From an uncultured Bacteroidales bacterium (GTDB lineage Bacteria; Bacteroidota; Bacteroidia; Bacteroidales; Paludibacteraceae), in contig ONPG01000003.1 of NCBI GenBank assembly GCA_900319645.1, positions 186,001 to 250,000 on the forward strand: a DNA stretch of 64,000 bases. The letters are read 5' to 3'. The notes under the pieces were generated by a model. It searched no databases. It saw nothing but the letters and a program-made list of their open reading frames with translations, and was not told the origin of the DNA. Position 1 is the stretch's first letter. Each line of letters begins with the position of its first letter. Shown here in pieces: positions 1 to 64,000 of this stretch. The position numbers and the translations under genes were made by a program.

Positions 1-907
1 GAGAACTCAAAGTAATCGGAGTAGTCGGAGTAGTCGGAGTACTCAGATACTCTTTCATTTCAGCGAAGAGCCAGGGATTGCCGAACGTAGCCCGACCGAC
101 CATAATCGCATCTACTCCGTAGCGGTCGAAGCACTCGCGTGCGCGCTCAGGCGTACACACGTCCCCGTTACCTATAATAGGTATATGCATGCGCGGGTTG
201 TTTTTGACTTCGCCTATCAGCGTCCAGTCGGCTTCGCCGCGGTACATCTGGCTGCGCGTACGGCCGTGGATAGCCAGTTCCTGAATACCACAGTCCTGCA
301 GGGCTTCGGCGAGATCCACAATAAAAGTTGAGGGTTGAGAGTTGATAGTTGATAGTTGATAGTTTTGAGATAAGCCCAGCGGATTGACACGCGGATGGAG
401 GTCGTTTTCGTCCCATCCGAGGCGGGTCTTGGCGGTTACGGGCGTGTGCACGGCATTGACGACCGCACGGGCGATCTCCAACATCTTAGGCACATCGCGC
501 AGGAGTCCTGCGCCGGCGCCCTTGCCCGCCACTTTCTTGACCGGACAGCCGAAATTGATATCTATGAAATCCGGGTGCGCCTGCTCGACGATACGTGCTG
601 CATCTGCCATCGCTTCGGGTTCGCGGCCGTAGATCTGGATAGCCACCGGCCGCTCGGCATCGTGGATCGTGAGTTTACGGGTGGTAGAAGCAATATCCCG
701 CACGAGCGCGTCGGCATTGACGAACTCGGTATATACCCGATCGGCTCCGTAGCGTTTGCAAAGCGCACGGAAAGCCGGATCGGTCACATCCTCCATAGGA
801 GCCAGATAGAGCGCGTTGCGCTCTGACCGCTGCGCTGTAAGACCGGCTTCGCCTGTAAGATCGCTTGCGCTGAAAGATCGTTCACTATTGTTCACTAAAA
901 GACTCAT
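1..907 (-). CDS. dusB: tRNA-dihydrouridine synthase DusB (3' end outside window)
   Basis: Flavoenzyme that reduces uridine to dihydrouridine in tRNA. The minus-strand frame opens at ATG 907 and stays open to base 1, so the C-terminus is missing. Family motifs seen: LAPMEDVTDPAFR near the N-terminus, DINFGCPVKKV, GAGLLRD, AIHGRTRSQMYRGEADW, GNGDV and VGRATFGNPW. Three stretches are unlike the family. The first ~27 residues come from short GC-rich hairpin repeats (808-884). A heptamer array (326-366) inserts QNYQLSTINSQPS between KTRLGWDEN and VDLAEALQDCGI. A 9-bp array (11-46) encodes STPTTPTTP after the last motif. The start overlaps the stop of the upstream HD gene (ATGA), so the two are co-transcribed. 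Identity is secure; folding around the inserts is inferred. Confidence 0.93.
   Translation of the reverse strand, partial: MSLLVNNSERSFSASDLTGEAGLTAQRSERNALYLAPMEDVTDPAFRALCKRYGADRVYTEFVNADALVRDIASTTRKLTIHDAERPVAIQIYGREPEAMADAARIVEQAHPDFIDINFGCPVKKVAGKGAGAGLLRDVPKMLEIARAVVNAVHTPVTAKTRLGWDENDLHPRVNPLGLSQNYQLSTINSQPSTFIVDLAEALQDCGIQELAIHGRTRSQMYRGEADWTLIGEVKNNPRMHIPIIGNGDVCTPERARECFDRYGVDAIMVGRATFGNPWLFAEMKEYLSTPTTPTTPITLSS
11..46. repeat. Four-unit 9-bp array near the dusB C-terminus
   Basis: AGTAATCGG, AGTAGTCGG twice, AGTACTCAG; encodes Ser/Thr-Pro repeats. Confidence 0.92.
326..366. repeat. Five-unit heptamer array inside dusB
   Basis: AGTTGAG, GGTTGAG, AGTTGAT three times, then a partial unit; in frame. 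Confidence 0.92.
808..884. repeat. Short GC-rich hairpin repeats at the dusB N-terminus
   Basis: GAGCGCGTTGCGCTC, then ~16-18-bp units GACCGCTGCGCTGTAA, GACCGGCTTCGCCTGTAA, GATCGCTTGCGCTGAAA, each with a small inverted repeat. Confidence 0.75.
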
Positions 908-2787
908 TTATTCAACGTGGGATAGGAGATACGGTGGTGGTTGAACGCTATGAGGCGTGATTTGAAGACGCGGCGGATGTCCTCGACGTCCTTGAAGGAG
1001 AGCGGTGTCTCGGCGAATTGTCCGTCTGCTATCTGGGCGTCAATCATCTGATCCACAGCGTTTCCGATGGATTGCTCGGTAAACTCGGAGAGGCTGCGCG
1101 AACGCGCCTCAACGGCGTCGGCCATCATCAGGATAGCCGCCTCTCTGGTGGTCGGTTTCGGCCCCGGATACTGGAAGAGTGCGGTCTCGACCTCTTCGCC
1201 CGGATGGGCGTTACACCAGGTGTTGTAGAAATAACGGACAAGCGAATTGCCGTGGTGGGTAGCAATAAAATTGACAATCACCTCTGGCAGATGGTTACGG
1301 CGTGCGATCTTGATGCCTTCCGACACATGGGCGATCACCACCTGCGCCGCGTCGCGCGGATCCATCTTGAGCAAGGGATTCTCCACGCCCGTCTGGTTCT
1401 CGACGTAATAGAGCGGGTCGGTCATCTTACCTATATCATGATAGAGCGCGCCCGTACGCACGAGGAGGGTGTTAGCTCCCACCTCTTTCGCCGCCTCGGA
1501 AGCCAGGTTGGAAACCTGCATCGAGTGCTGGAACGTACCGGGAGCACGTTCGGCGAGTGCGTGAAGCAGGTCGGAATTGATATCCGTAAGCTCGATGAGC
1601 GTGATAGACGAGATGAAACGGAAGAGGCGCTCGAAGATGAAAATCAAGCCGTAGCATCCTACCGTGAGAATCGCGCATATAAGGAAATAGAGGAACATCC
1701 ACGGGTCGATAGCCGTGACGACTCCGGTCTGTGCGAACGTGAAGGCGGTATAAGCCACTACCTGCGTCAGCATGATCCAGCCGGCTGTCTGTATGAGTTG
1801 CGCGCGACGCGTCATGTCGTTCAGCGACGAGACAGCTACCATGCCGACGGTGATCTGAATAAAGAAGAACTCCACGGGAGCCGGCGCAATCAGCGAGGCA
1901 ATCAGTATGGTCGTGAAATGCAGGAAGAGTGCGGTTCGGGAATCAAAGAAGACACGTGTGAGGATAGGCACCCAGGCAAAGGGAATCAGATAGATCGAGA
2001 GCGAAGAGAAACGCAGCAACGCACACGACAGACCAATAACGATGAAGATCTGGAGGCAGAAGAAGAGTACCGTGGAGGTGGAGCGCAAGTACTGCGGACG
2101 GAAGACATACAGATAGAGCACAAACAGGCAAAGGAAGAGGAAAACCAACATCGCTTCGCCGAAGACAGAGAGTGCGTGCTGCTTCTGTCCGAAGGAATCT
2201 CCCTCCAGTGTCCGGCTGAGCGATTGCAGGACTTGGTAGTGACGGTCGGTGACGATATCGCCCTGACCGATAATTTTCTCCCCCGCCTGCACTAATCCCT
2301 GGGTGGGAGAGATAGACGCCAGTTGTTTCTCGAGATAGGACTCCGTCATCGCCGTGTCGAGCGTGAGGTTGCGCGTACACTCGTAGCCGAAATGTTCGTA
2401 CGCCGACTTAGGCGTATAGACATCAGAGAGCGGATAGGTTCGCGCGAGGCTGTTCTGCACGATCGCGATACGACTGAAGCCGTTCTCCTGGATATACTCC
2501 ATTTCCTGGAGGGAGATAACCATTACCTGACGTTGCACACGCGGGATGTAGCGGAAATAGGGAGCAAAGGTCGAACGCATTCGCTCCTGCTCTTTGGCGA
2601 ACTGCTCATCCGTTTTGTAAATCGGGAAGTCATATTCAGCACGAAGCGTGGCGTACGCCCAGGGTTTGCCCACCTCGTAGTGGTAGCGGAGCGAGTTGTT
2701 ATACCTCGGGAAGAGGAGGACGAGGACAGCCGCCAAAAGGACGAATGCGCCGAGGCGGAAGACTTGATTTACTATTTTATCATTCAT
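904..2787 (-). CDS. 7TM-HD (PgpH-type) membrane phosphohydrolase
   Basis: 627-residue membrane protein of the 7TMR-HD family. Its best-known member, PgpH, hydrolyses the second messenger c-di-AMP. An N-terminal membrane anchor (about residues 10-27) is followed by an extracytoplasmic domain, then a block of about seven membrane helices (roughly 205-395) and a cytoplasmic HD domain. The HD domain carries HSMQVSNLA, the metal-binding HDIGK (YHDIGKMTDPLYY), IIAHVSEG and THHGNSLVRYF. It ends in ATGA shared with dusB, and the fused GGGPS-tadA gene begins about 40 bp downstream of its upstream neighbour in the same direction. Assignment to the family is firm. The c-di-AMP substrate is inferred from the family. 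Confidence 0.88.
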   Translation of the reverse strand: MNDKIVNQVFRLGAFVLLAAVLVLLFPRYNNSLRYHYEVGKPWAYATLRAEYDFPIYKTDEQFAKEQERMRSTFAPYFRYIPRVQRQVMVISLQEMEYIQENGFSRIAIVQNSLARTYPLSDVYTPKSAYEHFGYECTRNLTLDTAMTESYLEKQLASISPTQGLVQAGEKIIGQGDIVTDRHYQVLQSLSRTLEGDSFGQKQHALSVFGEAMLVFLFLCLFVLYLYVFRPQYLRSTSTVLFFCLQIFIVIGLSCALLRFSSLSIYLIPFAWVPILTRVFFDSRTALFLHFTTILIASLIAPAPVEFFFIQITVGMVAVSSLNDMTRRAQLIQTAGWIMLTQVVAYTAFTFAQTGVVTAIDPWMFLYFLICAILTVGCYGLIFIFERLFRFISSITLIELTDINSDLLHALAERAPGTFQHSMQVSNLASEAAKEVGANTLLVRTGALYHDIGKMTDPLYYVENQTGVENPLLKMDPRDAAQVVIAHVSEGIKIARRNHLPEVIVNFIATHHGNSLVRYFYNTWCNAHPGEEVETALFQYPGPKPTTREAAILMMADAVEARSRSLSEFTEQSIGNAVDQMIDAQIADGQFAETPLSFKDVEDIRRVFKSRLIAFNHHRISYPTLNK

Positions 2788-2830
2788 AAGCTATAGAGTT
2801 TTCTGGATTTCCGGAGTTCCGGAGTTCTGG

Positions 2831-4009
2831 TTAGCGTTTCCCGGCAAAGAAACGTTGTATTAGCGTTTTGCACTCTTCGGCGAGGACGCCGGAGGTGACT
2901 TGTGCTTTGGGGTGGAAAGCCCGCGGGGCATAGGTGGTGTAGCCTCGTTTGGGATCAGGTGCGCCATAGACGATACGGCTGATTTGCGCCCAACCGACGG
3001 CTCCTGCGCACATCGGACAGGGTTCGACGGTCACATAGAGTGTAGCATCCGGCAAGTACTTGCCACCGAGGGTCTGTGCAGCCGCCGTAATCGCCTGAAT
3101 CTCAGCGTGTGCCGTGACGTCCGTCAGCGTCTCCGTCAGGTTGTGTCCGCGTCCGATAATCTGTCCTTGCGAGACGATGACACAGCCGATAGGTATCTCA
3201 TCGGCTTCAAGCGCCTTCTCTGCTTCGCAGAGGGCGAGACGCATGAAGCGCTCGTCGGAAGAACTCGGAGGAATCGGAGTATTCGGAGAACTCTGAGTAA
3301 TCTGACAGAAATCTCTCAGTTCTTCGGGATGGGACTCGAAATGGTTGCCAATGACCACTATGTCTGCTCCTGCGGAATAGGCGGCTTGCATAGCATCGGG
3401 CGTGCGTATTCCTCCGCCAACGATAAGCGTGACAGATGTCTGCTCGCGCACAGCACGGATGATGTCGGGCGAGACAGGTGTCTTGGCGCCCGAACCGGCT
3501 TCGAGATAGATGGCTTTTTTGCCCATCAGTTCGGCGGCGATGGCTGTATCGATGATCGTTTGGACGCCTTCGGCGTTGTTGGGGTTGAGAGGCCGGGTAT
3601 TCGTGACGCGCATGGTAGATGTCTCTACTCCGCCGTCTATGAGAATATAGGCTGTCGGAATCACTTCGATATGCGAGTCGTGGATAGCACGAGCTGATTT
3701 AATATGTTGACCTACAAGGTATTCCGGGTTGTTTCCAGAAAGCAAAGAGAGGTATAAAATACCATCCGCCTCGGGTGTAAACTGTGCGGCGTTGCCGGGA
3801 AAGAGGATAATTGACAATTGAGAATTGACAATTGACAATTTCTCTCTGAGCGCACGGACGAAGGCCGTGGTGTCCCCACCGGTAGAGCCGCCGACAAAGA
3901 TGAAGTCAGGCAGGCAATCCGCGGAGAGCGGAAGCGCATTCAGATCGGCTTTCTCAGGATCGAGGAGAAGGGCGAGGGATTTATTATTTTCGCATTTGCC
4001 TATTTTCAC
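2831..4009 (-). CDS. Fusion: geranylgeranylglyceryl phosphate synthase (PcrB/GGGPS) + tRNA adenosine deaminase TadA
   Basis: One uninterrupted 392-residue frame holds two normally separate enzymes. Residues 1-236 match GGGP synthase, the TIM-barrel prenyltransferase joining a polyprenyl diphosphate to glycerol-1-phosphate: ALLLDPEKAD, FVGGSTGGD, LYLSLLSGNNPEYL, YLEAGSGAKTPVS, VGGGIRTPDAM. Residues ~258-392 are a full TadA, which makes inosine at the tRNA-Arg wobble position: HAEIQA (zinc ligand and catalytic Glu) and PCPMCAG. The linker (~237-257) is encoded by a five-copy 9-bp array (3262-3306). A five-copy heptamer array (3807-3841) replaces part of the barrel with EKLSIVNSQLSI before ILFPGN. 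TadA is normally essential, so the fusion is probably made and active. The start overlaps the gldD stop (ATGA). Confidence 0.9.
   Translation of the reverse strand: MKIGKCENNKSLALLLDPEKADLNALPLSADCLPDFIFVGGSTGGDTTAFVRALREKLSIVNSQLSIILFPGNAAQFTPEADGILYLSLLSGNNPEYLVGQHIKSARAIHDSHIEVIPTAYILIDGGVETSTMRVTNTRPLNPNNAEGVQTIIDTAIAAELMGKKAIYLEAGSGAKTPVSPDIIRAVREQTSVTLIVGGGIRTPDAMQAAYSAGADIVVIGNHFESHPEELRDFCQITQSSPNTPIPPSSSDERFMRLALCEAEKALEADEIPIGCVIVSQGQIIGRGHNLTETLTDVTAHAEIQAITAAAQTLGGKYLPDATLYVTVEPCPMCAGAVGWAQISRIVYGAPDPKRGYTTYAPRAFHPKAQVTSGVLAEECKTLIQRFFAGKR
3262..3306. repeat. Five-unit 9-bp array at the GGGPS-TadA junction
   Basis: AACTCGGAG, GAATCGGAG, TATTCGGAG, AACTCTGAG, TAATCTGAC; encodes the inter-domain linker. 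Confidence 0.92.
3807..3841. repeat. Five-unit heptamer array in the GGGPS domain
   Basis: ATAATTG, ACAATTG, AGAATTG, ACAATTG, ACAATTT; encodes KLSIVNSQLSII. Confidence 0.92.
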
Positions 4010-4674
4010 ATTTTCACATTTTGCCAGCGGAAGGTTTCTATCATCTTGATCACATCCGTGCGGAGGTAATTAAATACCGGCGCGAGGGAGTCGGCGTTGG
4101 GCGGGCAGTTGCAATAGACCGACGCGCGGAAGAAATGACGCGTGGAGTCGGTCAGGAAGAACTGGCAGGAAGAGGCCGTATTGCCCTCTAAATCAAAGAG
4201 TACGCCATAGACGCGGTCGGCAGGACGGTTGTAGTCTCTTTCGGGTATAGCCGAAGCGTGGGAGGCATTGTGATAGACCAGTTCGAGTGCATCGTCCGTG
4301 AGTGCCCGCAAGTTGCCCCGGACAGGTTTGTATGAGCAATGGATAGTGGCGTTCAGAGCCGGGTAATAGAGGTTGATCCAATAGGGTTCGGCTTGGTCGG
4401 TACGCGGCTGAACCACAGCGTTTTGCGAGAGGGCGAAAGAGTAAGGATAATTGATAGTTGACAATTGACAATTGATAATTGATAATTGCGGATTGGTGAT
4501 TGCGGATTGGAAATCCACATAGGCGGTGTCGGGAGGAGAGATACGGAAATAGCCGTACGGCTTGGGTATAGCCACACGGTTGCAGGCGACACATGCCAGC
4601 AAGAGAAAATTGATAATTGACAGTTGACAATTGACAATTATTTTATTTTTCGACCACAAGTTCATATTACTCAC
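4006..4674 (-). CDS. gldD: Gliding-motility lipoprotein GldD
   Basis: 222-residue lipoprotein of the GldD family, part of the gliding/type IX secretion-associated set in Bacteroidetes. Recognised by PKPYGYFRISPPD just after the lipobox and by the C-terminal pattern around SCQFFLTDSTRHFFRASVYCNCPPNADSLAPV. The N-terminus has a lipobox (LLAC or CVAC). The hydrophobic signal region itself, IIVNCQLSIINFLLLAC, is partly encoded by a five-copy heptamer array (4606-4640). A nine-unit heptamer array (4447-4509) inserts about 21 residues after AYVDFQS. The stop overlaps the next gene (ATGA). ATG 4665 is an alternative start. Family call is good; function is by homology only. Confidence 0.82.
   Translation of the reverse strand: MSNMNLWSKNKIIVNCQLSIINFLLLACVACNRVAIPKPYGYFRISPPDTAYVDFQSAITNPQLSIINCQLSTINYPYSFALSQNAVVQPRTDQAEPYWINLYYPALNATIHCSYKPVRGNLRALTDDALELVYHNASHASAIPERDYNRPADRVYGVLFDLEGNTASSCQFFLTDSTRHFFRASVYCNCPPNADSLAPVFNYLRTDVIKMIETFRWQNVKM
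4447..4509. repeat. Nine-unit heptamer array inside gldD
   Basis: ATAATTG, ATAGTTG, ACAATTG x2, ATAATTG x2, CGGATTG, GTGATTG, CGGATTG; 63 bp read in frame. Confidence 0.93.
4606..4640. repeat. Five-unit heptamer array in the gldD signal peptide
   Basis: AAAATTG, ATAATTG, ACAGTTG, ACAATTG, ACAATTA; encodes IVNCQLSIINF-type residues. Confidence 0.92.
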
Positions 4675-4868: not shown

Positions 4869-4903
4869 AATTGAAAATTGAAAACTAAAAATTGGACATT
4901 GAA
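4869..4903. repeat. Five-unit heptamer array in manC leader
   Basis: AATTGAA, AATTGAA, AACTAAA, AATTGGA, CATTGAA. Confidence 0.8.
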
Positions 4904-4967
4904 AGGAAGATAGGGGAAGGGATGTTGTCATGGTTGGGTTAGGTTTTTGTCCCGTTTTGGTCCGCAG

Positions 4968-5011
4968 AATCACCCATGAATCACCCATGAATCACCCATG
5001 AATCACCCATT
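4968..5011. repeat. AATCAC 11-bp array, four units (manC leader)
   Basis: AATCACCCATG three times plus AATCACCCATT, exactly 44 bp. Confidence 0.95.
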
Positions 5012-8432: not shown

Positions 8433-9691
8433 AAGCGTTAATGTTCGGATGGGAGTTTCCTCCTCATATCTTAGGCGGTTTGGGAACAGCGAGCTACGGT
8501 TTGACCCGCGGCATGGCCCAACAGGAAGATATGCATATCACTTTTGTTATCCCGAAGCCTTGGGGTGACGAGGACCAGAGTTTCCTGCGTATCATCGGCG
8601 CTAACAGCGTGCCGGTAGTGTGGAAAGACGTTAACTACGACTACGTGAAGCAGCGGATGGAGGGCAAGATGAGCCCGGAGGAGTATTACCACCTGCGCGA
8701 CGGCATCCAGTACGACTACCGCCGTATCGGGACCGACGACTTGGGCTGTATCGGTTTCTCAGGCCGCTATCCCGACAACCTGATCGAGGAAATAGGTAAC
8801 TACGAAGCCGTAGCGAGTGTGCTGGCACACAGCCTGGATTTTGATATTATCCACAGCCACGACTGGCTGACCTATCCGGCAGGTGTATTCGCCAAACATA
8901 TCAGCGGCAAACCGCTGGTTATCCACGTACACGCCACGGATTTCGACCGCAGCCGCGGCAATGTGAACCCAACGGTTTATGCCATCGAGAAACGCGGAAT
9001 GGACGAAGCCGACCATATCATGTGCGTGAGCAACCTGACGCGTCGCACGGTGATAGAGAAATACGGTATCGACCCGCGCAAAGTGAGCACGGTACACAAC
9101 GCCGTAGAGCCTCTGGCTCATCCGGAAGAGTTCACCAAGCCCGAGCGCAAGGACAAATTAGTGACCTTCCTCGGCCGTATCACGATGCAGAAAGGACCGG
9201 AGTATTTCGTAGAAGCCGCAGCCCGCGTGCTGAGCAAGACGAACGGTGTACGTTTCGTGATGGCCGGCAGCGGCGACAAGATGGCGGAGATGATCGACCT
9301 GGTAGCCAAACGCGGAATAGCCGACAAGTTCCACTTCCCGGGCTTCATGCGCGGCAAGCAGGTACAAGAGATGCTCGCCATGAGCGACGTATATATTATG
9401 CCATCCGTGAGCGAGCCGTTCGGTATCAGTCCGCTGGAAGCCATGCAGGTAGGCTGTCCGTCTATCATCAGTCATCAGTCGGGCTGCGCAGAGATCCTGC
9501 AGCACGCTATCAAGACAGACTACTGGGACATCGACGCTATGGCTGACGCTATCTACGCGATCGTCAAGTATCCGGCTATGTACAAGAGCCTGCATGAGTT
9601 AGGCCAGGCAGAGGTGAACAACATCCGCTGGTACGACGCAGGTCTGAAAGTGCGTAAGATATACGACGGCGTGATAAACCACACGTTATAA
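8429..9691 (+). CDS. GT4-type glycosyltransferase, probable glycogen synthase of the glycogen operon
   Basis: 420-residue GT-B glycosyltransferase. N-terminal domain: MFGWEFPPHILGGLGTASYG (donor/acceptor glycine loop) and DIIHSHDWLTYPAGVFA. C-terminal domain: VTFLGRITMQKGPEYFVEAA, RFVMAGSGDKM and the E-x7-E nucleotide-sugar motif in SVSEPFGISPLEAMQVGCP. Its place between the debranching enzyme and a GH57 protein, with an ATGA start overlap, makes glycogen chain elongation the likely role. Donor (UDP- or ADP-glucose) cannot be read from sequence. Followed by a 4 x 15-bp array before the next gene. Confidence 0.88.
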   Translation: MKALMFGWEFPPHILGGLGTASYGLTRGMAQQEDMHITFVIPKPWGDEDQSFLRIIGANSVPVVWKDVNYDYVKQRMEGKMSPEEYYHLRDGIQYDYRRIGTDDLGCIGFSGRYPDNLIEEIGNYEAVASVLAHSLDFDIIHSHDWLTYPAGVFAKHISGKPLVIHVHATDFDRSRGNVNPTVYAIEKRGMDEADHIMCVSNLTRRTVIEKYGIDPRKVSTVHNAVEPLAHPEEFTKPERKDKLVTFLGRITMQKGPEYFVEAAARVLSKTNGVRFVMAGSGDKMAEMIDLVAKRGIADKFHFPGFMRGKQVQEMLAMSDVYIMPSVSEPFGISPLEAMQVGCPSIISHQSGCAEILQHAIKTDYWDIDAMADAIYAIVKYPAMYKSLHELGQAEVNNIRWYDAGLKVRKIYDGVINHTL

Positions 9692-9750
9692 TTTACCATT
9701 TGGTCATTTACCATTTGGTCATTTATTTAGTAATTTAACCATTTAGTAAT
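9691..9750. repeat. Four-unit 15-bp tandem array between GT and GH57 genes
   Basis: Units ATTTACCATTTGGTC, ATTTACCATTTGGTC, then two diverged copies. On the minus strand the unit reads AAATGACCAAATGGT, the same family as the in-frame 15-bp array inside rdgB (63896-63970). Confidence 0.85.
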
Positions 9751-9761
9751 TTTTAGAAATT

Positions 9762-11084: not shown

Positions 11085-13028
11085 TTGAATAGACGATTGT
11101 TCATAGTATTAGTGCTGTTGGCAGCGACCCTGTGGGCCGCTGCCAAACCGCCGCGCACGAAGACGGTGATCCACACATGGCAAATGCCGGGATTCACAGC
11201 CGTTGCGGATACTTTGGAACAATTCAACGACACCGCCACGCTGAACTACCACGACGTGGACGTACAACAGAACTACTCGCTGAGCAGTGCCACTAACGGC
11301 AACGTGCTGGTGTCGCCTATCGAGAGCCGTATTGTGCAAGACAGGCTGAAGACCATTGACGATCCGTTTGCATGGAGCCTGACACCATACGTGGTCACGC
11401 CTCAGCAGCAACGGTTTTTCAATACCACCACGCCATTCAGCACAGTTGCATACAAAAAAGGGTTTGTGACCGGACACGAAGAAAACGATATTGATTTTCT
11501 CTTCACCGGCAACATCGGTCGCAAGTTGAATTTAGGCGTAGAGATGGACTACCTGAACTCGGTGGGTCACTATGCCAACACGGCAGGTAAGTTGTACCGC
11601 GGATCCGTGTGGGGCAGTTACACCGGTGACCACTACAGCATGCACGCTGCTTTCGGATGGAGCCAACTGAGTTCGTATAACAATGGAGGACTGAAGGATG
11701 TAGAGGACCTGAAAAGCAGTTTGAACGCTGAAGATATCCCTGTAAGGCTGAATGCGATGATCGGTTACCGCTACCTGAGCGGCTATCTGCACAACCAATA
11801 CGCCATCTCGCACGAACGGGAATATGTGGATTCGATAGAAGTGATAGAGAACGGAAGACGGGTGAAGAAAGACACGGTGAAGACGCAGTTTATACCGTTA
11901 ATCACTTTCTCGCATATTTTCGAGACCAACAACTCGAACCGCCGGTATATAGAGAAGACCGCGGAACAGGGTTTTTACGACACGACCTATTACGACTCGA
12001 GCGCCACGCGTGACACGACAGACGTACTGACCATCCGCAACACGATAGCCGTGACTTTTTGCGAAGCATACAACACCAAGCTGAAGTTCGGAGCTACTGT
12101 TTTTGCCATGAACGAGTTTCAGCGATGGCTGCGCGACAGTGTGCCTTACGACAGTATATACGACTACAAATGGTCGAACAACACGTATATAGGCGGAGCC
12201 ATTCACAAGCACAGCGGCAAATATGTGCGGTATAACGTAGAGGGCCACGTGTGTCTGGTGGGCTACAAAATAGGTGAGTTCGACGTAGAGGGCAAGATAC
12301 GCACGCGTATTCCTATAGGAAAAGACTACTTGTTTGTCAACGCACGTGCTTTTGTCAAGAGCGAGAAGCCGAGCTGGTATTTGCAACATTACCGATCGAA
12401 CCACATCCAATGGGAGAACAACTTCGGTTTCAGTTACCGTGTGTTAGGCGGCGCAACCGTAGCCTATCCTACCCGTTGGATCAAACCGAGTGTGGATTTC
12501 AGTTTCGAGAACCGGACACGACCTATCTTCGTTTCCCATTCGGACTGGAAACCCAGACAATACAGCGGAAATGTACAGATAATAACCGGCGACGTGGGAT
12601 TAGACCTGACCACTCCGTGGATCAATCTGGAGAACCACGCGGTTATCCAACACACCACCAACGACAGCGTGATGCCTGTTCCGCTGTTGATTTTACAACA
12701 CAGGCTGTATTACCACGGAACGTGGTTCCGCGCCTTGGACGCACAGATAGGTGTGGATTTGCGGTATTTCACCCGTTACCACGCACCTGTATTGTGCCCC
12801 GCAACCGGCATGTTTGCCAACCAGCAGACCGAAGTGGCCGGCAATTACCCGTGGCTGAACGTATATGCCAATTTCTTTGTGCGTTCGATCCATTTACGAT
12901 TCTTCGCACAATACCAGCATTTCAACCACCTGTTTATGCACGACAACATCAACTATCTGACGATGCCCGGCTATCCGACCAACCGGGATGTATTCCGGGC
13001 AGGGTTGGCGTGGCACTTCTATAATTAA
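11085..13028 (+). CDS. Putative outer-membrane porin (Porin_10 type)
   Basis: 647-residue beta-barrel protein with a signal peptide (about residues 1-21, LFIVLVLLAATLWAAA). The body alternates aromatic and polar residues, as expected for strands. Recognisable stretches include NDIDFLFTGNIGRKLNLGVE, GHYANTAGKLYRGSVWGSYT, IPLITFSHIFE and a C-terminus DVFRAGLAWHFYN ending in an aromatic residue, as BAM substrates do. This fits the large 'putative porin' family of Bacteroidetes. The start is TTG at 11085; no ATG gives an intact signal peptide. It sits 57 bp after the glycogen operon and may be read through from it. Substrate unknown. Confidence 0.8.
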   Translation: MNRRLFIVLVLLAATLWAAAKPPRTKTVIHTWQMPGFTAVADTLEQFNDTATLNYHDVDVQQNYSLSSATNGNVLVSPIESRIVQDRLKTIDDPFAWSLTPYVVTPQQQRFFNTTTPFSTVAYKKGFVTGHEENDIDFLFTGNIGRKLNLGVEMDYLNSVGHYANTAGKLYRGSVWGSYTGDHYSMHAAFGWSQLSSYNNGGLKDVEDLKSSLNAEDIPVRLNAMIGYRYLSGYLHNQYAISHEREYVDSIEVIENGRRVKKDTVKTQFIPLITFSHIFETNNSNRRYIEKTAEQGFYDTTYYDSSATRDTTDVLTIRNTIAVTFCEAYNTKLKFGATVFAMNEFQRWLRDSVPYDSIYDYKWSNNTYIGGAIHKHSGKYVRYNVEGHVCLVGYKIGEFDVEGKIRTRIPIGKDYLFVNARAFVKSEKPSWYLQHYRSNHIQWENNFGFSYRVLGGATVAYPTRWIKPSVDFSFENRTRPIFVSHSDWKPRQYSGNVQIITGDVGLDLTTPWINLENHAVIQHTTNDSVMPVPLLILQHRLYYHGTWFRALDAQIGVDLRYFTRYHAPVLCPATGMFANQQTEVAGNYPWLNVYANFFVRSIHLRFFAQYQHFNHLFMHDNINYLTMPGYPTNRDVFRAGLAWHFYN

Positions 13029-13111
13029 TAGTTAATAATTAATAGTTAAAATAGTTAATAATTAATAGTTAATATCGTACGGCTTTGCCGATCGTTCGAG
13101 CAAAGCGAGAT
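13024..13111. repeat. Heptamer-like AT array and GTTCGAGCAAAGCGAG motif
   Basis: Heptamer-like TTAATAG/TTAATAA repeats (13024-13074) are followed by two short GC-rich units, one CGGCTTTGCCG hairpin and one ATCGTTCGAGCAAAGCGAGATAA (13089-13111). The second motif recurs at 37141-37163 with one mismatch. Confidence 0.75.
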
Positions 13112-17094: not shown

Positions 17095-17120
17095 ACGCCT
17101 CCGAGAAGGAGGCGTTTTTT
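17095..17120 (+). terminator. rpoD terminator
   Basis: ACGCCTCC-GAGA-AGGAGGCGT followed by a T-run. Confidence 0.92.
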
Positions 17121-17169
17121 GTTTGAGATTGTTTGAGATGTTTGAAGTTGTTTGAAGTTGTTTGAAGTT
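17121..17169. repeat. Five-unit ~10-bp tandem array
   Basis: Units GTTTGAGATT, GTTTGAGAT, then GTTTGAAGTT three times, directly after the rpoD terminator. Confidence 0.9.
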
Positions 17170-18246: not shown

Positions 18247-19698
18247 TTAAACCAGCAAAAAATCAATTTGTGCGCGATTTTCGTCCACTCTGAGCACTTT
18301 AACCATGACCGGATCGCCCAACGTATATGCTCCCGCGTCGGAGACGAGTCGGTAGTTTTTCTCGTCGTGCTGCCAGTATTCACCGTTTCCGATGTTGGAG
18401 ATATGGACGAGTCCTTCGCAATGTGTCTCGTCGAGTTGCACAAAAAGTCCGAAATCGGTTACTCCGGAAATGTGTCCCGGAAGAACCTCTCCGATTTTGT
18501 CCGCCATAAACATCGCCTGGAACATCTTGATAGATTCGCGTTCGGCTTGCTGTGCTTCCTGTTCGCAAGCAGAACAATGGTCGCTTATCTCCTGCAGTTC
18601 ATCTTGTGTCCACGTAGTTGTTTTTCCGTTAAGGACGTATTTGTCCAAGAGCCTGTGGACCATGAGATCCGGGTAGCGGCGGATGGGAGAAGTGAAATGG
18701 GTATAGTGGGTGAAAGCAAGTCCGTAGTGCCCGATGTTATGGGTTGAATAGACCGCTTTCGCCTGTGCGCGGATGGTCAGCAGTTCGAGCACTTGCGGCT
18801 GAATGCGCGAGCCGAGACGCTTTTTGAATTCCTGCAGGTCGTCGAGTTTCTCCTGATTCGGTATGTCGTGAACGCGGTAGATGAACGGTCTTCCGCTGAC
18901 CGACCTTGCGACGGTACGATTCGCAAGGAGCATAAATTCCTCGATGAGATGATGGGCTTCGTTGGGTTCCTCAAAATAGATTTCTACCGGGCGGCCGTAT
19001 TTATCCAGCCGGAATCGCATTTCGGATTGCTCAATATCGAGTGCTCCGTTCAACATACGTGCTTGGCGAAGTTTGAGTGCAAGGGAGTTGAGGACAGAGA
19101 GCGCTTCCTCTATTTTGCCGTTATTCTCTGCTTTTCCGTCCGATTCGTTTTCGTCTCGTTTTCGACTCGTTTTCGTCTCGTTTTCGTCTCGTTTTCGAGT
19201 TTGACCACTACCAGACAAACAAATGAGGGCTTGCGCCTCGTCGTAATTGAGTCTTGCGTCGGAGCAGATGACCGTCCGGCAGATTTTGTGTTTGAGGACC
19301 CGTGCATCAGCGTCCATGGTAAAAATGACGGACATACAGAGTTTGTCCTCGCCGGGTCTGAGGGAGCAGAGGTTGTTGCAGAGGCGTTCCGGCAACATCG
19401 GGAGTACCCTATCGACCAGATAAACGGATGTTCCCCGGCGATAAGCGTCTTCGTCCTCTTTGCTGCCCGGTTTGACATAATAGGAGACATCGGCGATATG
19501 GACTCCGATGCGGAAGATTTTTTCGTGATCCCGTGATCCCGTGATCTCGTGATCCCGATCTTCTTTTACTTCCACAAAAGAGAGGGCGTCATCGAAATCC
19601 TTGGCATCGGCAGGATCGATGGTAAAGGTGAAAACATCGCGCATGTCGCGGCGACGCAAAATTTCCTGTTGGGGTATAGAATGTATCATGTTTGTCAT
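18247..19698 (-). CDS. rnr: Short RNase R-type exoribonuclease (RNB + S1 only)
   Basis: 483 residues from ATG 19698. RNB catalytic domain: DPADAKDFDDA (Asp28, 34, 36, 37 bind the metals), IGVHIADVSYYVKPGS, TSVYLVDRVLPMLPERLCN, LIEEFMLLANRTVA, STHNIGHYGLAFTHYTHFTSP-IRRYPDLMVHRLL. C-terminal S1 domain: PGHISGVTDFGLFVQLDE to the end. Typical RNase R is ~700 residues with two cold-shock domains before the RNB domain; here the frame begins just before RNB. A promoter ends 11 bp upstream of the ATG, so nothing larger is transcribed from it. Two tandem arrays are read in frame (19524-19555 and 19145-19199), and a segment before LLTIRAQAKAVYST is shorter than usual. Catalytic residues are intact. Confidence 0.88.
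   Translation of the reverse strand: MTNMIHSIPQQEILRRRDMRDVFTFTIDPADAKDFDDALSFVEVKEDRDHEITGSRDHEKIFRIGVHIADVSYYVKPGSKEDEDAYRRGTSVYLVDRVLPMLPERLCNNLCSLRPGEDKLCMSVIFTMDADARVLKHKICRTVICSDARLNYDEAQALICLSGSGQTRKRDENETKTSRKRDENESDGKAENNGKIEEALSVLNSLALKLRQARMLNGALDIEQSEMRFRLDKYGRPVEIYFEEPNEAHHLIEEFMLLANRTVARSVSGRPFIYRVHDIPNQEKLDDLQEFKKRLGSRIQPQVLELLTIRAQAKAVYSTHNIGHYGLAFTHYTHFTSPIRRYPDLMVHRLLDKYVLNGKTTTWTQDELQEISDHCSACEQEAQQAERESIKMFQAMFMADKIGEVLPGHISGVTDFGLFVQLDETHCEGLVHISNIGNGEYWQHDEKNYRLVSDAGAYTLGDPVMVKVLRVDENRAQIDFLLV
19145..19199. repeat. Five-unit 11-bp tandem array inside rnr
   Basis: Five consecutive units of TCGTTTTCGTC (with AC/AG variants), 55 bp. Read on the minus strand it encodes the charged peptide KRDENETKTSRKRDENES. 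Confidence 0.92.
19524..19555. repeat. Four-unit 8-bp tandem array inside rnr
   Basis: CGTGATCC, CGTGATCC, CGTGATCT, CGTGATCC (32 bp), encoding DRDHEITGSRDHE. The minus-strand unit GGATCACG belongs to the same family as the arrays before and inside mpl. Confidence 0.9.
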
Positions 19699-24764: not shown

Positions 24765-24768
24765 CTGA

Positions 24769-24800
24769 CAGTTTAACAGCTTAACGATTTAACAGTTTAA
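24769..24800. repeat. Four-unit 8-bp tandem array over the panD stop
   Basis: CAGTTTAA, CAGCTTAA, CGATTTAA, CAGTTTAA (32 bp), spanning the tgt/panD spacer. The panD stop (24789-24791) and its last residues (NTLNC) fall in or beside it. Confidence 0.88.
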
Positions 24801-25189: not shown

Positions 25190-25266
25190 ATTTAAGTGCT
25201 GTTTTGCGCAAAAAAGAGGTGTTTTGGGTGGGAATGATGGCGGTATGGAGTCGGTAACGAGCCGCT

Positions 25267-29654: not shown

Positions 29655-29662
29655 TTGGTCGA

Positions 29663-44254: not shown

Positions 44255-44298
44255 AATCACGCTATAATAACGCTATAATCACGCTATAATCACGCTAT
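44255..44298. repeat. AATCAC 11-bp array, four units (between regulator and rpe)
   Basis: Same four units and same 3' flank TTTAACCAACAAA as 25267-25310. Confidence 0.95.
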
Positions 44299-44495: not shown

Positions 44496-45146
44496 ATGAA
44501 ACGCATAGCACCTTCGGTATTGTCTGCGGATTTTGGGAATCTGAGACAGGACTTGGAAATGATCAACCGTAGCGAGGCAGACTGGCTGCACGTGGATGTC
44601 ATGGACGGCGTGTTCGTACCGAATATCTCTTTCGGTTTTCCGCTGATGGTTCCTATGCGGAAGTATTGTACCAAACCGCTGGACGTGCATCTGATGATCG
44701 TTCATCCGGAGAAATACGTGGAGCGTTTCTGCGACGCAGGAGCTTATTCGGTCGGATTCCATCTGGAGGCGGTAGAGGATCCGTTGCCCATATTAGAGCT
44801 GATCAAAGCAAAAGGCGTGCGGACCTGTCTGACCATCAATCCTGATATAGATGTGAAACGGCTCGTGCCTTATTTGGACAAAGTGGATATGGTGTTGCTG
44901 ATGAGTGTTTTTGCCGGTTTCGGCGGGCAGAAATTCATTCCCGAGACGATGGACAAAATCCGCTTCATCCGCCAGGAGATAGACCGAAGAGGTCTGAAGA
45001 CGCTCGTGGAGATAGACGGCGGCGTGAACACCGAGAACGCACAGGCACTATTCAAGGCAGGAGCCGATGTGCTGGTAGCCGGAAGCGCAGTCTTCGGAGC
45101 AGAAGATCCGGAGGAAGCGATTAGGAAGATGAAAACTGAAAACTGA
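44496..45146 (+). CDS. rpe: Ribulose-phosphate 3-epimerase
   Basis: 216-residue TIM-barrel enzyme of the pentose phosphate pathway (ribulose-5-P to xylulose-5-P). Seen: IAPSVLSADFGNLRQDLEMI, WLHVDVMDGVFVPNISFGFP, KPLDVHLMIVHPEKYV, LMSVFAGFGGQKFIPETMDK, VEIDGGVNTENA and DVLVAGSAVFGAEDP. The active-site Asp/His residues are intact. The very last residues (KTEN) come from the heptamer array that fills the rpe-comEC gap, so its stop lies inside repeats. Confidence 0.96.
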   Translation: MKRIAPSVLSADFGNLRQDLEMINRSEADWLHVDVMDGVFVPNISFGFPLMVPMRKYCTKPLDVHLMIVHPEKYVERFCDAGAYSVGFHLEAVEDPLPILELIKAKGVRTCLTINPDIDVKRLVPYLDKVDMVLLMSVFAGFGGQKFIPETMDKIRFIRQEIDRRGLKTLVEIDGGVNTENAQALFKAGADVLVAGSAVFGAEDPEEAIRKMKTEN

Positions 45147-45194
45147 AAGGGGAAAACTGAAGAGGGAAAACTGAAAACTGAAAACTGAGAAATG
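45132..45194. repeat. Nine-unit heptamer array joining rpe stop and comEC start
   Basis: Nine 7-bp units, mostly AAAACTG with AAAGGGG, AAGAGGG and a final AGAAATG. The rpe stop (45144-45146) and the comEC ATG (45192) both lie within it. Confidence 0.88.
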
Positions 45195-46586
45195 AAATCA
45201 TACCCGATGATAGCAGTATTGGCAATCGTGATTGCCGTGCTGCTATTATTGGATAAATACCGGCCGGACGTGCTGCTCTATCAGACAGAATGTGAGACGA
45301 TTGACAGTATGCGGGTGTATGCTTTTGCGGTCGGAAAAGAAAAAGCGAAAGTAACAAGCGGCAAGACAGACCGATACGAAGCAGAGGCATTGGGCGTCGG
45401 GAAAGTACTCCTATATATCCTGCGCGACAGTACGCGTACGCGCCCGCAAACAGGCGATACCCTTATTACCCGGACACGTATCCGGCGAGGCGGACACATA
45501 CGGCGGTTTGACTACGGGCTTTACCTGAGAAGACAAGGTATCACGGGAACGGTATACGCAGGAGAGTACGTATTGAAAACCGGAAACAAACGGGATGAGC
45601 CATCTTTACAAGAGCGGTTGTACAAGAGGCTGGAAGCGAGCGGATTACGCGGAGACGAACTGGCGACGACAGGCGCTTTGACCTTGGGATACAAAGAAGA
45701 TCTGGATCCGCTTTTACGCAGACGATTTCAGGCGTCGGGAGCAGCACATGTGCTGGCAGTAAGCGGTTTGCACACAGGGATTCTCTACGGACTGCTGATA
45801 GCCATTCTGACATTAGGCGGGCGATTGAAGCCGATGCATGAGGACCGAACAGGCCGATGGTTGCTCAGTTGCGTGCTGATAGCCGCTATGTGGGGCTACG
45901 CATGGCTCACAGGAATGACACCTTCGGTAGTACGATGTGTGGTGATGGTCACGATGGTGGAAATAGGAAAGATGATCTACCGCCACAGCCCGACACTCAA
46001 CACGATAGCCGCAGCCGCCGTATTGATTCTGATAGTAAGGCCGATGGACTTATGGAGCGTGAGTTTTCAACTCTCCTTTGCCGCCACAGCCGCCATCGTG
46101 ATCGTGGCACGAGACGCGGAATTCAAACTACACAGGTTGGAATGGGAAAACAGTCTGCCGGGGAAAATGCTCAGTTGGATAGCCGGAACCATCCTCATCA
46201 GTATAGCGGCACAACTGGGAACAATTCCTATTACGATGTACCTGTTCGGGCAAGTGAGCAATTATTTTCTGCTGACGAACCTGATTGTACTGCCACTTGC
46301 AAGCCTGTTAGTTCCCTGCGGTTTGGCAAGCGTGGCGTTGGGAGGAAGTGGTTTGGGACAACTTATCGGCTATCTGACAAGCGGTTTGGCATGGATGATG
46401 AACCATGCCGTCGGATGGATAGAGCGCCTACCGGGCAGTAGTTCCGCCGTAGTTATCAGTCTGCCGATGGTGGGACTGCTATACGGAGCTATCGTCATGG
46501 GATGGCTGACCATACACAAGAGCCTTTGGTGGCTCACGGGCGTCATAGCCGCCATCATCACTTTTTGCATATTATATACCTTATGA
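45192..46586 (+). CDS. comEC: ComEC/Rec2-type competence channel, short form
   Basis: 464-residue polytopic membrane protein that carries single-stranded DNA across the inner membrane during uptake. N-terminal helix, an OB-like domain (GRVLLYI-type strand, TRTRPQTGDTLI), then the Competence domain with SGAAHVLAVSGLHTGILYGL and a run of helices to the C-terminus. Many ComEC proteins have a C-terminal metallo-beta-lactamase-like nuclease domain and are ~700 residues or more; here the protein ends after the last helix. The start codon is the last unit of a heptamer array. xseA overlaps its stop (ATGA). Confidence 0.87.
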   Translation: MKSYPMIAVLAIVIAVLLLLDKYRPDVLLYQTECETIDSMRVYAFAVGKEKAKVTSGKTDRYEAEALGVGKVLLYILRDSTRTRPQTGDTLITRTRIRRGGHIRRFDYGLYLRRQGITGTVYAGEYVLKTGNKRDEPSLQERLYKRLEASGLRGDELATTGALTLGYKEDLDPLLRRRFQASGAAHVLAVSGLHTGILYGLLIAILTLGGRLKPMHEDRTGRWLLSCVLIAAMWGYAWLTGMTPSVVRCVVMVTMVEIGKMIYRHSPTLNTIAAAAVLILIVRPMDLWSVSFQLSFAATAAIVIVARDAEFKLHRLEWENSLPGKMLSWIAGTILISIAAQLGTIPITMYLFGQVSNYFLLTNLIVLPLASLLVPCGLASVALGGSGLGQLIGYLTSGLAWMMNHAVGWIERLPGSSSAVVISLPMVGLLYGAIVMGWLTIHKSLWWLTGVIAAIITFCILYTL

Positions 46587-53374: not shown

Positions 53375-53418
53375 AATCACGGTATCTCGTCGGTATGTCG
53401 TCGGTATATCGCAGGGAT
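53375..53418. repeat. AATCAC 11-bp array, four diverged units (upstream of pgk)
   Basis: AATCACGGTAT, CTCGTCGGTAT, GTCGTCGGTAT, ATCGCAGGGAT; period 11 is kept while the unit drifts. Confidence 0.8.
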
Positions 53419-62906: not shown

Positions 62907-62961
62907 AATCTCCCCCTAATCACCCCGTAATCACGCGCTAATCACCCCCTTATCACCCCCT
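62907..62961. repeat. AATCAC 11-bp array, five units (after initiator tRNA)
   Basis: AATCTCCCCCT, AATCACCCCGT, AATCACGCGCT, AATCACCCCCT, TATCACCCCCT, 55 bp. Confidence 0.92.
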
Positions 62962-63016
62962 TTTTAGTAACGTTTTACCAAAGTTCAGGTGTTAAGGGCA
63001 CTTTCAAATCAACATA

Positions 63017-63056
63017 AAGTAATTTAAAGTAATTTAAAGTAATTTAAAGTAATTTT
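63017..63056. repeat. Four-unit 10-bp array
   Basis: AAAGTAATTT four times without change, just after the DUF2147 stop. Confidence 0.95.
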
Positions 63057-63591: not shown

Positions 63592-63690
63592 CGGATATGT
63601 GTGCGTGTGCATGTTTGCACGTGCGTGTAATCGCGATTACACGTGCGCAAAATTAAGAACGTGTGCGTGAATACACATGTGCAAAAAATA
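63592..63690. other. GT/CA-alternating leader with 20-bp palindrome
   Basis: Runs of alternating purine-pyrimidine (GTGTGCGTGTGCATG and similar) surround the palindrome CGTGTAATCGCGATTACACG. It lies in the presumed rdgB leader. Confidence 0.75.
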
Positions 63691-63703
63691 ATAAAGAATA
63701 AAG

Positions 63704-64000
63704 ATGAGACTTGTATTTGCATCCAACAACCGCCATAAGTTAGAAGAGGTCAGGCAGATTATGCCCGCCGGCGTGGAAGTGCTGAGCCTGCAAGAAGCAG
63801 GTTTCTTCGCCGAGATAGAGGAGACAGGCACCACCTTAGCGGAGAACAGTATGATCAAAGCTCGAACCGTGGCTGATTTTCTCCAAAAAAAGAAGGCAAA
63901 TGAGCAGGTGGTTAATGAGCAAACGGCAAATGGTCAGACGGTAAATGACCTGAAGGCGGATGAGTTAGGCGTTTTTGCGGATGATACGGGTCTGGAGATA
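63704..64000 (+). CDS. rdgB: XTP/dITP diphosphatase RdgB (3' end outside window)
   Basis: House-cleaning NTP pyrophosphatase that removes ITP/XTP. 99 codons are in the window. Seen: MRLVFASNNRHKLEEVRQIM (the T/SNN-x-HK start), VEVLSLQEAGFFAEIEETGT, NSMIKARTVADFL and GVFADDTGLEI. Between DFLQKKK and GVFADDTGLEI, where the family has a short helix-loop, lies an in-frame five-unit 15-bp array (63896-63970) encoding five pentapeptides of the form [AV]-N-[EGD]-[QL]-x, ANEQV to ADELG. The rest of the gene is beyond the window. Confidence 0.93.
   Translation, partial: MRLVFASNNRHKLEEVRQIMPAGVEVLSLQEAGFFAEIEETGTTLAENSMIKARTVADFLQKKKANEQVVNEQTANGQTVNDLKADELGVFADDTGLEI
63896..63970. repeat. Five-unit 15-bp array inside rdgB
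   Basis: GCAAATGAGCAGGTG, GTTAATGAGCAAACG, GCAAATGGTCAGACG, GTAAATGACCTGAAG, GCGGATGAGTTAGGC. Same family as the intergenic array at 9691-9750. Confidence 0.9.

What the first reader, a model, noticed from the sequence alone, without database searches (positions are those of the whole stretch)
11..63970. A dense population of very short tandem arrays with fixed copy number (4-5) but many unit lengths
Twenty or so arrays occur in 64 kb. Unit lengths counted: 7 bp (326, 3807, 4447, 4606, 4869, 45132), 8 bp (19524, 24769, 29663, 30403), 9 bp (11, 3262, 28274, 62463), 10 bp (17121, 63017), 11 bp (4968, 19145, 25267, 44255, 53375, 62907), 15 bp (9691, 63896). Copy number is four or five in almost all (nine in two heptamer arrays), so array length scales with unit length while copy number stays constant. 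Each family appears at unlinked loci, both between and inside genes. Ordinary slippage would give scattered copy numbers. The pattern suggests a specific array-making or array-spreading process, perhaps templated, that I cannot match to a known element.
Basis: partly seen in the sequence, partly recalled or inferred. Interest (0 to 1): 0.88.

Follow-up and report, generated by a model that had tools for sequence, protein, structure and literature searches.

The report
Short DNA repeats rewriting gene spacers
In a genus of herbivore-gut bacteria the short stretches between genes are often replaced by small repeat arrays in a species-specific repeat dialect, and one 11-base repeat family, not seen in the other Bacteroidales genomes searched, looks like a new DNA element placed near promoters.

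Summary
A 443-kb sample of the genome holds 202 arrays (period 5-25, score>=40) against 2-10 in six Markov nulls. A general "fixed 4-5 copies" is not supported: heptamers fall off from the detection floor (3:19, 4:14, 5:9, 6:2).

The observation hides two things.

(1) Fast spacer turnover across the genus. Many orthologous spacers are unrelated though the flanking genes are over 90% identical; in L068/L118 the genomes are 97.6% identical. Identical heptamer units recur about 4.5-12 times more often within a genome than between genomes. One promoter site keeps 4.3-4.9 copies in eight species with five different units.

(2) A distinct element of about 100 bp: usually 3-7 phased 11-bp units AATCAC+N5 with conserved flanks. 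Its pattern occurs in 44 of 61 genus genomes and 0 of 158 other Bacteroidales, though a reversed control also rings in 24 of the 61. The core is nearly invariant, N5 species-specific. About half lie between divergent genes. I read it as a protein-binding iteron cluster that spreads by copying.

No array-making enzyme was found.

The parts
4967..5010 (+). AATCAC element: GAATCACCCAT x4, 100% matches, in the 5' leader of the manC-like gene (5055-6281)
   Evidence: TRF; same unit at other sites of the genome; flanks
25266..25310 (+). AATCAC element, unit AATCACGCTAT x4.1, with second unit AATAACGCTAT
   Evidence: TRF; same internal variant and same right flank TTTTAACCAACAAA as 44255
44255..44298 (+). 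AATCAC element, unit AATCACGCTAT x4.0, same internal variant as 25266
   Evidence: TRF
62907..62961 (+). AATCAC element, subfamily AATCACCCCCT x5, after tRNA-Met (62731-62803)
   Evidence: TRF; tRNA; same subfamily in genome G059
3809..3840 (-). heptamer array AATTGAC x4.6 inside the PcrB part of ORF 2831-4009 (peptide KLSIVNSQLSI)
   Evidence: TRF; translation; Pfam
3255..3302 (-). 9-bp array that codes the linker between PcrB and deaminase (TadA-like) domains in one ORF (QITQSSPNTPIPPSSS)
   Evidence: TRF; translation; Pfam PcrB 14-230 and deaminase 251-389
4446..4488 (.). heptamer array GATAATT x6.1, non-coding by my caller
4608..4639 (.). heptamer array AATTGAC x4.6, non-coding by my caller
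4869..4904 (+). degenerate heptamer array AATTGAA x5.1, just after the manC promoter-like motif
326..364 (-). heptamer array AGTTGAG x5.6 inside ORF 2-796 (peptide NYQLSTINSQPST)
11..41 (-). 9-bp array x3.4 in the same ORF (peptide STPTTPTTPI)
9689..9752 (.). 15-bp array x4.4 starting at the stop codon of ORF 8429-9691
13021..13074 (.). heptamer/23-bp array ATAGTTA, 7.4 copies, at the end of ORF 11085-13028
17119..17169 (.). 10-bp array TTGTTTGAAG x5.2 behind ORF 16229-17089
19145..19197 (-). 11-bp array x4.8 inside an RNase R-like ORF (18247-19854), residues 220-237, where the query has extra residues against solved RNase R
19524..19557 (-). 8-bp array x4.2 inside the same ORF, residues 100-111, where the query has extra residues against solved RNase R
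24768..24801 (.). 8/16-bp array x4.2 just outside the start of the TGT-like ORF 23631-24764
28274..28307 (.). degenerate 9-bp array in the typA-tig spacer, not in the TRF list
   Evidence: sequence; orthologous spacers
29660..29694 (.). 8-bp array CGAGATCA x4.4 in the tig-mpl spacer
30400..30434 (+). 8-bp array ACGAGATC x4.4 inside the Mpl/MurC-like ORF 29685-31127; some relatives hold other arrays there
45130..45197 (.). heptamer array TGAAAAC x9.7 across the spacer between ORFs 44496-45146 and 45192-46586
53380..53411 (.). 11-bp array CGGTATATCGT x2.9 in the spacer before the phosphoglycerate kinase gene
63015..63055 (.). 10-bp array TAAAGTAATT x4.1, perfect
63891..63948 (+). 15-bp array x3.9 inside an RdgB/Ham1-like ORF (name recalled; no family search was run on it)

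Best explanation
The arrays are a mixed population, not one element. In this genus short tandem arrays are born often (probably by polymerase slippage or short tandem duplication). They are then copied between sites of the same genome, so that each species acquires its own repeat dialect. Copying can replace a whole spacer and sometimes rewrites it at about constant length. Selection keeps arrays where they do little harm: spacers, and in-frame loops of proteins. Within this background one family is a discrete element of about 100 bp: a left flank of up to 33 bp, usually 3-7 phased 11-bp iterons [A/T]AT[C/A]AC+N5, and a right flank of about 22 bp. It most likely works as a cluster of head-to-tail binding sites for an unknown DNA-binding protein, parked away from promoters and about half the time between divergent genes. 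Shown: abundance, turnover, unit sharing, flanks, pattern of substitutions, location. Inferred: slippage as birth step, ectopic copying as spreading step, selection, protein binding.
For: Abundance over null; 154 arrays of score>=50 in 63 loci that I assigned to the genus by similarity (2.08 per 10 kb) against 6 in 16 outgroup loci (0.32). Turnover: L068/L118, 97.6% identical over 12 kb, have unrelated typA-tig spacers while flanking 100-bp windows are 95-100% identical, bar one inside tig (88 of 97); the 83% relative L069 shares L118's version. In the 85-90% class 61 of 81 orthologous spacers are no more alike than unrelated ones, 57 of 71 with an array and 4 of 10 without. Dialects: identical heptamer units in 8 of 94 within-genome against 19 of 2753 between-genome pairs (2 of 500 permutations reach it); for the window's genome 86 of 1399 against 44 of 3245 (3 of 500). 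11-mers within one mismatch: 59 of 402 pairs within the window's genome against 0 of 812 with others. Same place and copy number with different units at one promoter. Element: pattern in 44 of 61 genus genomes, 0 of 158 other Bacteroidales; core positions 2, 3, 5 and 6 hold 5 mismatches in 246 interior units of six unit sets against 132 in the five N positions; flank blocks; 37 of 76 arrays between divergent genes; promoter-like motifs peak 100-200 bp away on both sides.
Against: No copying enzyme was identified. The reversed control pattern rings in 24 of 61 genus genomes; without G039 the totals are 763 matches against 102 control, and in G039 they are equal (103 and 102) (summed by hand), so 11-bp arrays with other cores exist and some of the 44 are weak: 23 genomes have at least five matches and more than twice the control. 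One search pairs are not independent, and a look at ten alignments shows that L090/L091 is a gene-calling artefact and L100/L103 only a copy-number change; at 75-80% gene identity arrays make no difference (113 of 154 with, 63 of 85 without). With tig, manC and ychF loci alone the dialect test is weak (18 of 500 permutations for identical units, 93 of 500 for <=1 mismatch). Only 11 pairs of AATCAC loci in different species lie next to similar genes at >=50% identity, and the neighbours show no common theme, so a regulon is not shown. A place between divergent promoters is also where a harmless insertion would survive. Orientation to co-directional genes is not clear (23 against 14). Most AATCAC sites were picked by a pattern containing the core; the G000 and G047 sets were not (31 and 56 units). 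Sets of only two exact-core units occur in G047. All genus genomes appear to be metagenome-assembled drafts.
Confidence: 0.5

Rival explanations
1. Ordinary local slippage and tandem duplication in unconstrained spacers, with no copying between sites; shared units reflect base composition and a few sequences that expand easily.
For: Broad copy numbers; copy-number differences at the same array in L065/L066 and L100/L103; weak dialect test on three loci alone (set A).
Against: Unit sharing within genomes, shared internal variants and flanks of dispersed 11-mers, whole-spacer replacement, rewriting at the same place and copy number.
Confidence: 0.25
2. Spacer alleles are exchanged by homologous recombination between strains and species; arrays ride along and the pattern is allele replacement.
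For: Tails of some spacers resemble those of other species; a ComEC-like competence gene lies in the window.
Against: The flanks of the replaced L068/L118 spacer show no clear donor tract (one tig window at 88 of 97); it does not explain how arrays arise or the dialects.
Confidence: 0.15
3. The AATCAC element is a selfish dispersed repeat, like a REP or MITE, mobilised in trans and without regulatory function; divergent spacers are simply where it survives.
For: Patchy presence (44 of 61 genomes), species-specific subfamilies with shared flanks, neighbours without a theme; one Y1_Tnp match over the cut-off in the own genome.
Against: Substitutions avoid the core and the window's genome has no sets of two, which fits a binding site better. 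No link between the Y1_Tnp gene and the arrays was found or sought.
Confidence: 0.3
4. The 11-bp arrays act in RNA as Rho-utilisation or attenuation sites: C-containing, G-poor, evenly spaced.
For: Many units have no or one G on the AATCAC strand; 11-nt spacing.
Against: Only 2 of 76 lie between convergent genes and 37 between divergent ones; no clear strand preference.
Confidence: 0.07

Closest known systems
TAACTGA heptamer direct repeats of Beggiatoaceae, cyanobacteria and a few Bacteroidetes (PMC4679880; abstract and two sections read)
   Same: Short intergenic heptamer arrays of a few copies, scattered over the genome; close relatives can lack them
   Different: There one unit dominates and related heptamers are rarely repeated; here there are many units, different sets in different species, further unit lengths, and an 11-bp family with a constrained core
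Tandem repeats of Borg elements (PMC9879509; abstract, one section and part of the discussion read)
   Same: Fast-evolving arrays both in spacers and in genes
   Different: Borg units are described as essentially unique to each region and, in genes, divisible by three; here units recur at unlinked loci, copies are imperfect, units of 7, 8 and 11 bp also lie in genes, and the arrays are on genome contigs of a bacterium
CarH operators of tandem 11-bp direct repeats (PMC9304148; passages seen)
   Same: 11-bp direct repeats, three to five units
   Different: Core nnnnTnnACAn and a place over the -35 box; here AATCAC+N5, commonly 100-200 bp from a promoter-like motif, at many unlinked loci
OmpR/PhoB-type operators (PMC4832192: start of abstract seen in a search listing, 7-bp direct repeats with 4-bp spacer)
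   Same: 11-bp period of direct repeats with a conserved part and a free spacer
   Different: Usually 3-7 units with conserved flanks, spacer bases shared species-wide, no regulon theme found

Membership tests
TAACTGA-type heptamer repeats | Unit TAACTGA dominant, related heptamers rarely repeated | tested here: not met
   Many related heptamer units are repeated in this genome; no TAACTGA consensus unit in the list
TAACTGA-type heptamer repeats | Heptamer arrays mostly intergenic, just upstream of start codons | tested here: inconclusive
   Mostly intergenic, but of 24 between co-directional genes 13 have their middle within 30 bp of the preceding stop, and at one promoter they overlap the promoter region
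Borg-type tandem repeats | Unit sequence essentially unique to each region | tested here: not met
   Units shared between unlinked loci
Borg-type tandem repeats | Units in genes divisible by three, giving amino-acid repeats | tested here: not met
   In-gene units of 7, 8 and 11 bp in the window besides 9 and 15; the ORFs stay open, and three in-gene differences between L065 and L066 are +18, +12 and +18 nt
CarH operator | 11-bp tandem direct repeats, three or more | tested here: met
   11-bp period, usually 3-7 units; only counted sets of three or more
CarH operator | Core TnnACA | tested here: not met
   Core is AATCAC followed by species-specific bases
CarH operator | Overlaps the -35 promoter element | tested here: not met
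   Promoter-like motifs peak 100-200 bp from the array
OmpR/PhoB operator | Bound head-to-tail by a response regulator | not testable with these tools
   Needs a binding experiment
REP/MITE-like mobile repeat | Dispersed copies with shared flanks and defined ends | tested here: met
   Flank identity falls to about 0.3 after up to 33 bp left and about 22 bp right; the left flank of the G047 set is weak (0.35-0.38)
REP/MITE-like mobile repeat | Terminal inverted repeats or hairpin; cognate transposase | tested here: inconclusive
   One Y1_Tnp match, 28.6 bits, cut-off 23, in the own genome; inverted termini were not searched
Phase-variable simple repeats | Copy number varies between cells or strains | not testable with these tools
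   No reads or strain sets; copy number differs between related genomes at single arrays

The most novel reading that the evidence does not exclude
The genus has an active array-copying process that overwrites non-coding DNA, often at constant length, with tandem arrays taken from elsewhere in the genome. It gives each species its own repeat dialect, and a genus-specific 11-bp iteron element at divergent promoters is its domesticated form, read by a dedicated DNA-binding protein.
Probability: 0.27. Interest if true: 0.88.

Novelty: new variant of a known kind. Interest (0 to 1): 0.7.

Why it matters
Bacterial spacers are usually treated as drifting slowly or as fixed by regulation. Here a whole spacer can be replaced while the neighbouring genes stay about 97% identical, and repeat units are shared across unlinked sites of one genome, which suggests a copying mechanism. 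If confirmed, it makes the origin of heptamer and 11-bp arrays directly testable (AATTGAY-type heptamers occur patchily across Bacteroidales), shows a route by which genes gain loops and fuse (the PcrB-deaminase linker), and gives a bait, the AATCAC array, for finding the protein that may read it.

Tried and rejected
Constant copy number as a general law: rejected. Reverse transcriptase as array maker: no RVT_1 match in the own genome (relatives were not searched). Ku-dependent end joining: 0 of 41 genus genomes. A regulon for the AATCAC arrays: neighbours in the window's genome look like manC, ispD, lysS, ychF, recQ and dnaE genes among others (read from the proteins, names recalled; the manC-like gene also by Pfam), no theme. 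Strand preference of the 11-mer arrays: 69 against 18 by downstream gene looked strong, but most of these are divergent, where orientation means nothing; among co-directional genes it is 23 against 14. Rho sites: kept as a rival. Stop codons in all frames as the reason for heptamers behind genes: considered, dropped without a count because several units carry no stop. Conserved position of AATCAC arrays: 11 locus pairs of different species next to similar genes at >=50% identity, not tested against a proper null; at ychF 2 of 30 upstream regions match an exact search for three cores, or none for the G000 locus itself, whose fetched flank starts on the other side of a different gene copy or start (the G000 array is seen in L057). 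A search for the deaminase motif upstream of manC found nothing in any of 22 loci, the window's own included, so it says nothing. Papers: eight searches showed no description of this genus's arrays or of AATCAC iterons; only open-access PubMed Central text was searched, and of the listed papers I opened three.

Full report
Host. The window is bases 186001-250000 of contig 20 of a 2.64-Mb draft genome in 48 contigs, 84% complete. The nearest named records are gut and rumen genomes titled Bacteroidales or Paludibacteraceae bacterium. The promoter motif TAnnTTTG used below is the Bacteroidetes -7 element, recalled and not taken from a call.

The observation. TRF lists 22 of the 24 arrays; the other two are visible but degenerate. 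In 443,374 bp of this genome there are 202 arrays of period 5-25 at score>=40 (122 at >=50), against 2-10 (0-1) in three order-3 and three order-5 Markov sequences. In 63 loci around tig that I assigned to the genus by similarity (739 kb) there are 154 arrays of score>=50 and period 6-40, against 6 in 16 outgroup loci (186 kb); some genus loci have none. A scan that needs about 11 net matched positions shows copy numbers falling from the detection floor for period 7, a mode of 4 for period 8, a flat 2-5 for period 11 and mostly 2-3 for longer periods. So the arrays are real and not chance, but a constant copy number of 4-5 is not a general rule.

Two exceptions deserve notice. First, the 11-mer family AATCACCCATG: in the sample, sets of size 3:1, 4:3, 5:5, 6:1, 7:1, none of 2, and 129 singles against a mean of 97.7 for permuted units. 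Second, a divergent promoter region upstream of manC. One search gave 30 loci; 23 were examined and 15 were laid out on the leftward -7 motif. Eight of the 15 (L256, L260, L265, L266, L267, L270, L271, L272) carry a heptamer array that starts 16-18 bp from the motif, with 4.9, 4.3, 4.6, 4.6, 4.6, 4.6, 4.6 and 4.9 copies; L258 shows one by eye. Up to rotation and strand they use five units (AAAATTC, AAAATTG, AAAAATT, AAAGTTG, AAAGGTG). L253 (the window's genome), L261 and L268 have no clean array but a stretch of about the same length there (judged by eye). Unit changes at constant length are not what insertion of new copies gives.

Turnover of spacers. At the typA-tig junction 38 loci gave 12-211 bp between stop and start; many hold visibly different short arrays, some close relatives share one sequence (L083, L086, L088, L089), and several have none; the last bases before the start codon are often alike (by eye). 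Over 780 orthologous spacer pairs, not independent because many are this one spacer, those no more alike than the 95th percentile of unrelated spacers are 5 of 8 where gene ends are 95-100% identical, 7 of 19 at 90-95%, 61 of 81 at 85-90%, 141 of 176 at 80-85%, 176 of 239 at 75-80% and 193 of 250 at 60-75%. At 85-90% these are 57 of 71 pairs with an array in at least one member and 4 of 10 without; at 75-80% there is no difference (113 of 154, 63 of 85). Of the 60 closest pairs listed, 12 spacers are at least 95% identical, 38 at most 55%, and 10 lie between. Ten alignments were inspected: both L068/L118 spacers and one L073/L074 spacer in the top class are replaced, L100/L103 is a copy-number change, L097/L100 is unclear, and L090/L091 in the next class is a gene-calling artefact. 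The clearest case is L068 against L118, 97.6% identical over 12 kb: the typA-tig spacer is 76 bp of 8-mers in one and 159 bp of unrelated sequence in the other, while flanking 100-bp windows are 95-100% identical apart from one inside tig (88 of 97). L069, an 83% relative, shares L118's spacer, so L068 is probably the changed one.

Dialects. In the window's genome 59 of 402 pairs of 11-mer arrays have units within one mismatch, against 0 of 812 pairs with other genomes; for heptamers 178 of 857 against 137 of 1722. Identical heptamer units at different loci: 6 of 65 within-genome against 17 of 1749 between-genome pairs using tig, manC and ychF loci only (18 of 500 label permutations reach this); 8 of 94 against 19 of 2753 when AATCAC sites of G039, G016 and G047 are added (2 of 500); 86 of 1399 within the window's genome against 44 of 3245 between it and 61 tig loci of other genomes (3 of 500). 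With <=1 mismatch the first set is not significant (93 of 500). G059 sites and one duplicated locus (L241) were left out there; an earlier run that held them is superseded.

Arrays inside genes. In the window, arrays fall inside an RNase R-like gene (two), a PcrB-like domain, the joint of that domain with a TadA-like deaminase domain, an Mpl/MurC-like gene (its NCBIfam matches are below the curated cut-offs) and others. Against a solved RNase R both RNase arrays fall where the query has extra residues. Between L065 and L066 three in-gene arrays differ by +18, +12 and +18 nt. At the loop of the Mpl-like protein that holds the window's array 30400-30434 (sequence), five relatives matched a search expression: ATCAGCC heptamers in L065, L066 and L081, AAAATTC-type heptamers in L061 and another insert in L059; the window itself and the other loci did not match the expression.

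The AATCAC element. A pattern of three ATCAC cores at 11-bp period has a match in 44 of 61 genus genomes, own included, and in 0 of 158 other Bacteroidales genomes from 139 other genera, only two of them of the same family. Against this: the reversed control rings in 24 of the 61; leaving out G039 the totals are 763 matches and 102 control matches, and in G039 103 and 102 (summed by hand from the table). I think AATCACTAATT arrays contain the control motif, but that was not tested; it also fits 11-bp arrays with other cores, which exist (for example ACGAATTATTA and AACGAACAACC). Twenty-three genomes have at least five matches and more than twice the control. The five bases after the core differ by species: CCATG here, TAATT in G039, CCAAG/CTAAG in G047, CCACT/CCCCT/CTAAG in G059, ATAAT and others in G016. 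In 246 interior units of six unit sets, two of them from G059 and partly overlapping, mismatches at positions 1-6 are 11 (all A to T), 1, 2, 12 (mostly C to A), 0 and 2; the five following positions hold 132. The G000 and G047 sites were not picked by the core: they show 0 and 6 mismatches at positions 2-6 (the six all at position 4) against 6 and 42 in N5, in 31 and 56 units. Of 91 arrays with three or more exact cores, copies are 3:25, 4:24, 5:27, 6:12, 7:2, 10:1; sets of two exact-core units also occur in G047. Around the array up to 33 bp left and about 22 bp right are alike between copies of one species, and identity then drops to about 0.3; the left flank of the G047 set is weak. The variant unit and right flank shared by 25266 and 44255 show copying of a block. 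Against G041, whose ManC is 86% identical, the window's genome has about 90 bp more between promoter and start, including the element, while the promoter itself aligns.

Place of the element. Of the 91 arrays, 76 have called genes on both sides: 37 between divergent genes, 23 and 14 between co-directional genes, 2 between convergent ones; one lies inside a gene and 14 have a neighbour missing. Spacers over 100 bp in the window's genome are 21 of 120 divergent and 11 of 120 convergent. Promoter-like motifs peak 100-200 bp from the array on both sides: 32 forward motifs in two 50-bp bins and 31 reverse motifs in two bins, with 1.6 expected per bin. The gene caller is crude and misses genes.

How it probably works. 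A conserved core, a free spacer, near-helical spacing and usually three or more units are marks of head-to-tail binding sites; CarH (PMC9304148, passages) and OmpR/PhoB-type regulators (PMC4832192, abstract start in a listing) bind direct repeats of 11-bp period. It is not a CarH operator by core or place. The shared N5 within a species needs copying as well as binding. Birth by slippage, spread by ectopic copying or recombination, and reading by a protein are inferences. Known tandem-repeat systems differ as listed: TAACTGA repeats (PMC4679880) and Borg repeats (PMC9879509). Heptamers of the AATTGAY type match in 29 of 158 other Bacteroidales genomes, though in a few (such as G084 and G180) the reversed control matches as often. 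So the heptamer part is a known kind of thing, while the AATCAC element and the concert of change look new.

Limits. Draft genomes, no reads, no strains, no expression data; orthologous-spacer counts are not independent; the spreading mechanism is unknown. The explanations listed as best and rival are not mutually exclusive, so their confidences need not sum to one.

Noticed in passing
window 2831-4009 (-): PcrB-like and deaminase (TadA-like) domains fused in one ORF through an array-coded linker.
   Followed up: partly
window 831-880, 5670-5731; typA-tig and tig-mpl spacers of L063, L074, L077, L104: A second kind of spacer repeat: a short conserved piece (for example CTGTAAGACCG) alternating with small variable palindromes such as GCTTCGC.
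   Followed up: no
genus genomes, tig hits: Many genomes match trigger factor only in two pieces, about residues 1-159 and 253-441, as if the middle domain were lost in part of the genus.
   Followed up: no
genus genomes, manC hits: Many relatives match the window's ManC-like protein in two pieces with a gap at about residues 107-149, a possible in-gene insertion.
   Followed up: no
L149 (G051 contig 17 end): An AATCAC array lies 9 bases from a contig end, so such arrays may break assemblies and be undercounted.
   Followed up: no
L199, L200, L203, L206, L212 (G059): AATCACCCCCT arrays are accompanied by AAAGGTG heptamer arrays, a composite block repeated at unlinked loci.
   Followed up: partly
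window genome sample: Five arrays of 69-bp period in 443 kb, not examined.
   Followed up: no
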